NCBI RefSeq assembly: GCF_000266945.1 | Contig: NC_018025.1 | Span: 6,080,001-6,144,000 of the forward strand | DNA: 64,000 nucleotides | Direction: 5' to 3' | DNA from: Desulfomonile tiedjei DSM 6799 | GTDB taxonomy: Bacteria; Desulfobacterota; Desulfomonilia; Desulfomonilales; Desulfomonilaceae | The notes under the pieces: model-generated | The model's database searches: none | Told to the model about the DNA's origin: nothing | The model's input: the letters and a program-made list of their open reading frames with translations, nothing else | Part shown: positions 25,669-51,984 of the stretch, one piece after another | Position numbering within the stretch: the stretch's first letter is position 1 | How the letters are laid out: the number at the start of each line of letters is the position of its first letter | Position numbers and translations under genes: made by a program

Positions 25669-25996
25669 TACAGAGAAATTGCCACAATTAAATGTCCGAT
25701 TGGGGACAAGAATATTGGTGGGTGCCGGCCTCCGTGCCGGCACATTTTGAATATAATCAATGATATCGATAGAATGGACCGGCAGAGAGAGACTGTCACA
25801 AAAGTCGAAATTCATTCCAGATGGTGGCACGATTTTCTCATCAACTTCCGGCCTTATTGTAGGGGCGGACCTGCGTGTCCGCCCAGATGATGGTAGACGC
25901 ATTGGTCTACCCCTACTCGGATGGAGAATCGTAGCACGATTTGTTGTGTATTCGAGAGCGGAATAAACATCAGAATTTTTGATAGACCTTTCCTGA
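25669..25996 (-). mobile_element. Composite MITE-like element, minus orientation
   Basis: Reading on the minus strand, the arm of the 190-bp element is seen from 25669 to about 25788 (CATTCTATCGATATCATTGAT, facing GTGCCGGC/GCCGGC blocks). The second element follows (25789 to about 25965, with TTGTAGGGGCGG and GTCCGCCC arms), and then a remnant of the other arm to about 25996 (CAGAATTTTTGAT). The inner element sits at the same site as at 51684 but in opposite relative orientation. One inner terminus is lost. Confidence 0.65.
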
Positions 25997-42596: not shown

Positions 42597-42789
42597 TTAT
42601 AGTCAGTGCCAAAAATTCTGTCGTTTATCCCGCATGTGAATTACAGGATATTGGTAGGGAACCGGCGTCTCTGCCGGTCCATTCTAGCGATATCATTGAT
42701 CATATTGAAGATGTGCCGGCACGGAGGCACGGCACTCACCAATATTCCTAATCTTCAATCGGATACACTAATTTTGGCACTTACTATAA
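42597..42789 (+). mobile_element. MITE-like dispersed repeat with the best-preserved TIRs
   Basis: A 193-bp element whose ends are TTATAGTCAGTGCCAAAA and TTTTGGCACTTACTATAA, an 18-bp terminal inverted repeat with one mismatch. It contains GGCGTCTCTGCCGG, GATATCATTGATCATATTG and GTGCCGGC blocks. It lies between the flippase and GT4 genes, in a gene-free 273-base gap. The intact GGCGTCTCTGCC site here is the uninterrupted form of the site split at 51683. Confidence 0.8.
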
Positions 42790-49786: not shown

Positions 49787-50066
49787 AGGAATTATAACCT
49801 TCAGGCCGTTGCGAGTTTCTCTTTACAACTGAAGAAGTCGACTGATGAATCCCCCTGAACACCGGCTGCCTCCGACGGTGTCAAGGTGATGCTTCCATTG
49901 CGGGCGGCTCAATGGGATGAGGCTCGTCTTTGCGAGTCTTCTGCAGTGATTCTCAAAAGTTATCTCGTATTATTAAGAGCCGTTCTTCGAAATTAGTAGC
50001 CACCGGTCTCCTGCCTGTGGACGATACGTAAATAAATCAATCAATTAACTCTGTCCGAGTTTCCCA

Positions 50067-51608: not shown

Positions 51609-51984
51609 TATTAGAGTGGCTGTCAAAAATTCTGACGTTTATCCTGCGCTCGGATACAAGATTTTAGTGGGGACTGGCGTCTCGAAACTGTCTCAAAAGC
51701 CGAAATTCATTCCAGATCGTGGCACGAATTTCCATCGATCCTGACTGCCCGATTGTAGGGGCGGGCCTAGTGTCCGCCCAGATAAGGGCAGGCACGAGAC
51801 CTGCCCCTACTCGGATGGAGAATCGTGGCACGATTCCTGTGTATTCGATAATTTTGAGACAGTTTCTCTCTGCCGCTGCATTCTATCGATATCATTGATC
51901 ATATTGAAAATGTGCCGGCACGGAGGCCGGCACCCTGCAATAGTCCTATCCTCAATCGGACATTAATTTTAGCAATTCGTATAA
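51609..51984 (+). mobile_element. MITE-like repeat interrupted by a second TIR element
   Basis: The outer element runs from TATTAGAGTGGCTGTCAAAA to ATTTTAGCAATTCGTATAA. It is split at its GGCGTCTCTGCC site by the 183-bp element described separately. Apart from the insert it matches 42597-42789 closely (GATATCATTGATCATATTGA and GTGCCGGCACGGAG blocks). It fills the space between the sensor and regulator genes. Confidence 0.8.
51684..51866 (+). mobile_element. Nested 183-bp TIR element with 4-bp target duplication
   Basis: Perfect 15-bp terminal inverted repeats GAAACTGTCTCAAAA and TTTTGAGACAGTTTC. Flanked on both sides by TCTC (51680-51683 and 51867-51870); removing the element plus one TCTC restores the uninterrupted GGCGTCTCTGCC of other copies. 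The interior has facing GGGGCGGGCC and GCAGGTCT-like arms. It is non-coding, so movement would need a transposase in trans. Confidence 0.8.

What the first reader, a model, noticed from the sequence alone, without database searches (positions are those of the whole stretch)
51609..51984. Nested TIR element inside a MITE-like repeat, with a clean 4-bp target duplication
The 183-bp insert has perfect 15-bp TIRs and TCTC on both sides; deleting it restores the site seen intact at 42597-42789. This is direct evidence of transposition of a non-autonomous element into another one.
Basis: seen in the sequence. Interest (0 to 1): 0.6.

Follow-up and report, generated by a model that had tools for sequence, protein, structure and literature searches.

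The report
Mobile DNA landing in hairpin loops
A tiny mobile DNA element sits inside another repeat because its family repeatedly inserts into the loop at the centre of DNA hairpins, copying the four-letter loop as it lands.

Summary
In detail: a 183-bp element (51684-51866) with perfect 15-bp TIRs and TCTC on both sides splits a ~187-bp repeat that is intact at 42597-42789. Genome-wide, this is one of many independent insertions into one spot. The insert is a MITE of an IS1182-family insertion sequence found in the same genome: 1681 bp, 19 copies, left end identical over 15/15 bp. Both make a 4-bp duplication, and the duplicated 4 bp sit at the centre of a palindrome. Of 61 copies with an exact TSD, 46 have at least 6/8 complementary pairs around it, against 0.6% of random sites. 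Targets include a REP hairpin (CCACGGGT-[TGAC]-ACCCGTGG), the outer repeat's hairpin (GGCG-[TCTC]-TGCC) and other stems. MITEs enter the outer repeat in both orientations and scatter over the MITE tree, so the pair did not spread as one composite. An unrelated IS110-family element uses the same hairpin in 14 of 14 copies, in one orientation. IS1272, another IS1182 member, replaces hairpins (published). Loop duplication by an IS1182-type IS and its MITEs looks like a new variant of known hairpin targeting. Recognition of structure rather than sequence is inferred, not shown.

The parts
51611..51984 (+). outer repeat, split copy (374 bp; 187 bp without the insert)
   Evidence: alignment of joined flanks to 42597-42789, 158/195 columns
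51684..51866 (+). inner MITE of the IS1182-type element
   Evidence: perfect TIRs; genome-wide family
51684..51698 (+). left TIR GAAACTGTCTCAAAA, identical to the left end of the 1681-bp IS
51852..51866 (-). right TIR
51680..51683 (+). target duplication TCTC, left copy
51867..51870 (+). target duplication TCTC, right copy
51672..51679 (+). left arm of the target hairpin (decayed here: 4/8 pairs with the right arm)
51871..51878 (+). right arm of the target hairpin
42597..42789 (+). intact (empty) copy of the outer repeat
42660..42679 (+). intact target hairpin AACCGGCG-TCTC-TGCCGGTC; DNA folding puts TCTC in the loop
25674..25788 (-). second outer repeat copy in the window, split at the same hairpin
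25789..25955 (+). second MITE, opposite orientation relative to its outer repeat (match ends at MITE position 165)

Best explanation
The inner element is a MITE mobilised in trans by an IS1182-family transposase encoded elsewhere in the same genome. The transposase joins the element ends across a 4-bp stagger at the centre of a palindrome (a potential hairpin or cruciform), so the loop is duplicated and both stem halves are kept. The outer repeat carries such a hairpin and has been hit there many times independently, in both orientations. Shown from sequence: shared end, 4-bp TSD, dyad-centred targets, independent events. Inferred: that the MITE uses this transposase, and that the transposase reads the folded or dyad structure rather than base sequence.
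For: IS1182 HMM 368.8 bits against cut-off 270. 19 IS copies, left end GAAACTGTCTCAAAA; 18 of 19 lie in REP-type hairpins with at least 7/8 arm pairs. Of 96 TIR pairs, 61 have an exact 4-bp TSD; 46 of 61 have at least 6/8 pairs; mean 6.44 at the TSD, at most 3.84 at any shift of 1 to 8 bp, 2.01 at random sites. Stems differ in sequence: CCACGGGT/ACCCGTGG, CCGTGGGT/ACCCACGG, GACCGGCG/TGCCGGTC, CCCGGCAA/TTACCGGG. 37 of 77 MITE pairings lie in the outer repeat, 22 same and 15 opposite. Host class changes 35 times on the MITE tree, shuffled mean 37.7, range 30-43. The two closest IS1182 relatives (Aminicenantes, 40% aa identity) also sit at palindrome centres: L207 GGGCGAAT[CGCC/CACC]ATTCGCCC, and L206 in a long palindrome around ACGT (ends read by eye).
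Against: 15 of 61 exact-TSD copies have fewer than 6/8 pairs, including one IS copy (134814, 2/8) and the window copy itself (4/8); some of these are decayed or shifted by a base, some are not hairpins. The hosts are repeat families, so the 46 are not 46 independent hairpins. The IS prefers one orientation in the REP (15 of 17, p = 0.002), which pure symmetry would not give. Many other IS1182 members duplicate GGCC in a dyad sequence motif instead. No orthologous empty locus was found in relatives (top-ranked hit 47% identity over the aligned part).
Confidence: 0.82

Rival explanations
1. Composite spread: the insert entered the outer repeat once and the pair then moved as one larger element.
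For: Many copies share the full inner-plus-outer layout at the same position.
Against: Both relative orientations (22 and 15 of 37), two MITE length classes of about 184 and 212 bp, and no clustering of host class on the MITE tree (35 changes against 30-43 shuffled).
Confidence: 0.05
2. Sequence-specific targeting: the transposase reads the base sequence of REP and outer repeats, and the dyad is only the form of the recognised motif.
For: REP and outer repeats make up most targets; orientation bias in REP, 15 of 17; related IS1182 members use a GGCC-centred dyad motif.
Against: Stems of different sequence are used with the same geometry, and the duplicated 4 bp vary (TGAC, GCAA, GTCA, TCTC, GGGA, TGAA, TAAG).
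Confidence: 0.3
3. Survival bias: insertions are random and only those in intergenic palindromes persist.
For: Targets are mostly dispersed repeats, which would be expected to tolerate insertions (inference; gene context was not tallied).
Against: Survival cannot place the TSD at the exact dyad centre: mean pairing 6.44 at shift 0 against 2.2 and 2.0 one base away.
Confidence: 0.03

Closest known systems
IS1272 / TnSha1 (IS1182 family; PMC5678879 and PMC4923244, passages read)
   Same: Same IS family; targets are inverted repeats of unrelated sequence; both orientations in one hairpin are reported for TnSha1.
   Different: IS1272 deletes or replaces the stem-loop and makes no TSD; here both stem halves stay and the 4-bp loop is duplicated, as in the model's pathway c of PMC5678879.
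IS1397 and ISKpn1 (IS3 family) in REP/PU sequences (PMC1525189, passages read)
   Same: REP palindromes are the landing site.
   Different: Different transposase family; no MITEs or second repeat family in the passages read. Their TSD and exact position were not checked: the primary paper is not held.
IS621 and other IS110-family elements (PMC11208160, passages read)
   Same: The unrelated IS110-family element of this genome uses the same outer hairpin, with guide-like 7-mers in its long left non-coding end.
   Different: Its 14 copies all have one orientation and meet the hairpin at a CT core; it did not make the insert in question.
GTAG REP / RAYT systems (PMC2817692 and PMC3733652, passages read)
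   Same: The REP hairpin here has a GTAG foot, and two inverted copies flank a Y1_Tnp gene (L289).
   Different: That Y1_Tnp scores as IS200 (65.4 against 55) and stays below the RAYT cut-off (26 against 80).

Membership tests
IS1182 family (the 1681-bp IS) | transposase above the family HMM cut-off | tested here: met
   NF033551 368.8 bits, cut-off 270; DUF772 and DDE_Tnp_1_6 in Pfam
IS1182 family (the 1681-bp IS) | terminal inverted repeats bounding the gene | tested here: met
   GAAACTGTCTCAAAA / GAAAGCGTCTCAAAA, 13 of 15
MITE of this IS | ends shared with the autonomous element | tested here: met
   15 of 15 with the IS left end
MITE of this IS | same TSD length and target class as the IS | tested here: met
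   4 bp, hairpin centres, REP used by both
MITE of this IS | no transposase gene | tested here: met
   183 bp; no ORF of 120 aa or more overlaps it
MITE of this IS | mobilised in trans by that transposase | not testable with these tools
   needs a transposition assay
IS1272-type inverted-repeat replacement | loss of the target stem-loop and no TSD | tested here: not met
   stem halves kept, exact TSD in 61 of 96 TIR pairs
IS110 family (second visitor of the hairpin) | IS110 recombinase above cut-off | tested here: met
   NF033542 240.5 bits, cut-off 140
IS110 family (second visitor of the hairpin) | bridge RNA matching its target | tested here: inconclusive
   7-nt left and right guide-like matches 24 nt apart in the 310-nt left end; both matches by chance at 36 of 48,543 other CT sites; exact-match donor guides were not found; the RNA itself is not shown
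REP/RAYT | GTAG-tagged palindrome flanking a RAYT gene in inverted orientation | tested here: inconclusive
   layout met in L289; protein below the RAYT cut-off

The most novel reading that the evidence does not exclude
An IS1182-family DDE transposase recognises extruded hairpins or cruciforms as a shape, not a sequence, and inserts by duplicating the loop, the so far hypothetical counterpart of IS1272's stem-loop replacement. Through its MITEs it turns REP sequences and other repeats into landing pads, one of which is independently used by an RNA-guided IS110 element.
Probability: 0.45. Interest if true: 0.65.

Novelty: new variant of a known kind. Interest (0 to 1): 0.52.

Why it matters
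DDE transposases are usually thought to read sequence or bendability (general knowledge, not from a call). A multicopy family whose TSD is the hairpin loop gives a natural, statistically strong test set for structure-guided insertion, and a partner to IS1272 that could separate loop duplication from stem replacement. The same genome offers a control: an IS110 element hits the same hairpin in one orientation only, as sequence guidance predicts, while the MITEs enter both ways.

Tried and rejected
Composite-element spread: rejected by orientation and tree.

Outer repeat as a derivative of the IS110 element: I first read it so (note). The outer repeat's own mobiliser was not found in the 20 stretches taken around outer-end sites; its TATA-type ends suggest TA-target elements, not shown.

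Orthologous empty site in 11 related genomes: no clear ortholog, top-ranked hit 47% identity. Close transposase relatives in genome contigs: the first scan gave none; an alignment query worked. Rfam: no match in window, L294 and L158. Solved structures: one weak hit to a designed protein, ignored.

General IS1182 survey: 85 loci examined (80 of 80, 5 of 7 plasmid loci; L203 left out as the same element as L201, L204 as too near the record end). 59 of 85 gave TIRs of at least 12/16 with a TSD of 3 bp or more; 14 of 59 had at least 5/7 pairs against 5.6% for mixed flanks. The rest, mostly GGCC-type, do not support hairpin loops as a family-wide rule. L206 and L207 were judged afterwards by eye.

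Sampling limits: BLAST-type searches scored only 40 of 555, 480 and 206 candidates, and one search listed about 100 of 209 pattern places, of which I carried 81 plus the BLAST places forward. The 96 TIR pairs include a few pairings across neighbours that share an end (for example 373218/373306 and 3743307/3743366). The tree used 68 of 77 MITE pairings; 9 outside 170-225 bp were left out. Among 20 matches to the IS110 protein, 5 rows at 25% identity were not examined.

Full report
What is there. The window holds a 183-bp element at 51684-51866 with perfect 15-bp TIRs, flanked by TCTC, inside a repeat that runs 51611-51984. An intact copy lies at 42597-42789. With the insert and one TCTC taken out, the flanks align to it with 158 of 195 columns identical.

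A family, not a single event. The genome (6.53 Mb, 2 contigs) holds 209 places with the TIR within one mismatch, against 2 for the reversed-pattern control. I collected stretches around the listed places and paired the ends by script: 96 pairs, of which 61 have an exact 4-bp direct repeat, while only 2 pairs match over 5 bp. MITEs come in length classes near 184 and 212 bp, plus a few of 77-78 bp.

The autonomous partner. A search with the DUF772 family found 19 places. All 19 have the TIR pair 1679 or 1681 bp apart, with left end GAAACTGTCTCAAAA. The 479-aa product is identical in 18 copies; the 19th is broken. It scores 368.8 bits to the IS1182 transposase model, cut-off 270.

The target is the centre of a palindrome. 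Around the duplicated 4 bp of the 61 exact cases, 46 have at least 6 of 8 flanking positions complementary. The mean is 6.44; it drops to 2.2 and 2.0 when the frame is moved by one base, is at most 3.84 at any shift up to 8, and is 2.01 at 50,000 random sites, of which 0.6% reach 6. Mixing left and right flanks of different copies gives 4.48, which is high because many copies share the same host repeat. The commonest hosts of the IS are palindromes with a GTAG foot, CCACGGGT-NNNN-ACCCGTGG or CCGTGGGT-NNNN-ACCCACGG: 18 of 19 IS copies, and 22 of 77 MITE pairings. 46 such palindromes remain empty (each is listed on both strands). Two of them, in inverted orientation, flank a Y1 transposase gene in L289, so this looks like a REP system; the protein itself falls below the RAYT model's cut-off. 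The second host is the outer repeat, 37 of 77 MITE pairings. Folding its intact copy as DNA leaves TCTC as the loop; folding the REP leaves GTCA as the loop. Rarer hosts include CCCGGCAA[TGAA]TTACCGGG and a hairpin like the outer repeat's second one (GTCAGCA[CGGA]GGCTGGC).

Many independent landings. In the outer repeat the MITE lies in the same orientation in 22 pairings and the opposite one in 15. On a tree of 68 MITEs the host class changes 35 times; shuffled labels give 37.7 on average, range 30-43. The window itself has a second, oppositely oriented case at 25674-25955. The pair was therefore not amplified as a unit.

A second visitor of the same hairpin. Outer-end sites led to an IS110-family gene in five of the 20 stretches taken. 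All 14 copies of at least 97% identity lie between CGGCGTCCC and GCTGCCGG, always in one orientation; 8 are in the outer repeat by alignment of the right flank and 6 in other repeats with the same hairpin. The element's 310-nt left end contains CGTCCCT and, 24 nt on, CCGGCAG, which match the left target and the complement of the right target around a CT core. Both 7-mers are present by chance for 36 of 48,543 other CT sites. The matching donor guides were not found as exact words. I take this as a likely bridge-RNA guide, not shown.

Elsewhere in the family. The closest relatives, two Aminicenantes loci at 40% identity, also sit at palindrome centres. Pseudomonas plasmid copies duplicate TCACT inside AAAGCCCGGC[TCACT]GCCGGGCTTT; two Acidobacteria copies duplicate 6-nt loops between different stems. 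Many other members in the survey duplicate GGCC within a dyad motif, so hairpin loops are one mode within the family, not its rule.

How it most likely works. The transposase brings the ends to a palindrome and attacks the two strands 4 bp apart at the dyad centre. Repair duplicates the loop and leaves each stem half at one end. This is the loop-duplication pathway that the IS1272 authors drew as a possibility, while IS1272 itself deletes the stem-loop and leaves no TSD (PMC5678879, passages read; PMC4923244, passages read). Whether the enzyme sees a cruciform or a symmetric sequence is open. The varied stems favour structure; the orientation bias of the IS in REP, 15 of 17, shows that some asymmetry is read too.

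Novelty. PMC5678879 and PMC4923244 both cite a review that some IS1182 members target palindromes. I found no paper on MITEs of IS1182 elements in hairpin loops, or on a loop-sized TSD in this family, in the searches (listings, with passages from six papers). The library lacks most subscription journals. New variant of a known kind.

Noticed in passing
L313-L326 (for example L294 302-1763): IS110-family element in 14 of 14 copies at the outer-type hairpin, one orientation, with guide-like 7-mers in its left non-coding end: a predicted bridge RNA aimed at a repeat hairpin.
   Followed up: partly
L289 1409-2018: Y1 transposase gene between two inverted GTAG-footed REP palindromes; protein scores as IS200, below the RAYT cut-off.
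   Followed up: partly
L159 (G000:C1 5129793-5131473) and G000:C1 4442639-4442852: Element copies whose two flanks come from different targets (TGAC/GCAA loops; REP on one side, outer repeat on the other), as expected after recombination between copies.
   Followed up: no
window 25674-25955: Second MITE-in-outer insertion at the same hairpin, opposite orientation.
   Followed up: yes
L208, L210 (Acidobacteria): IS1182-type copies with 6-nt TSDs that equal the loops of two different hairpins.
   Followed up: no
L216-L272 in part (Pseudomonas, Burkholderia and others): Many IS1182 members duplicate GGCC inside a symmetric motif with GCT...AGC-like arms.
   Followed up: no
G000:C1 373306-373518: A MITE copy that appears inserted in a MITE-type hairpin (GGGCGGGC / GTCCGCCC arms, CTCGT on both sides): possible self-nesting.
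   Followed up: no
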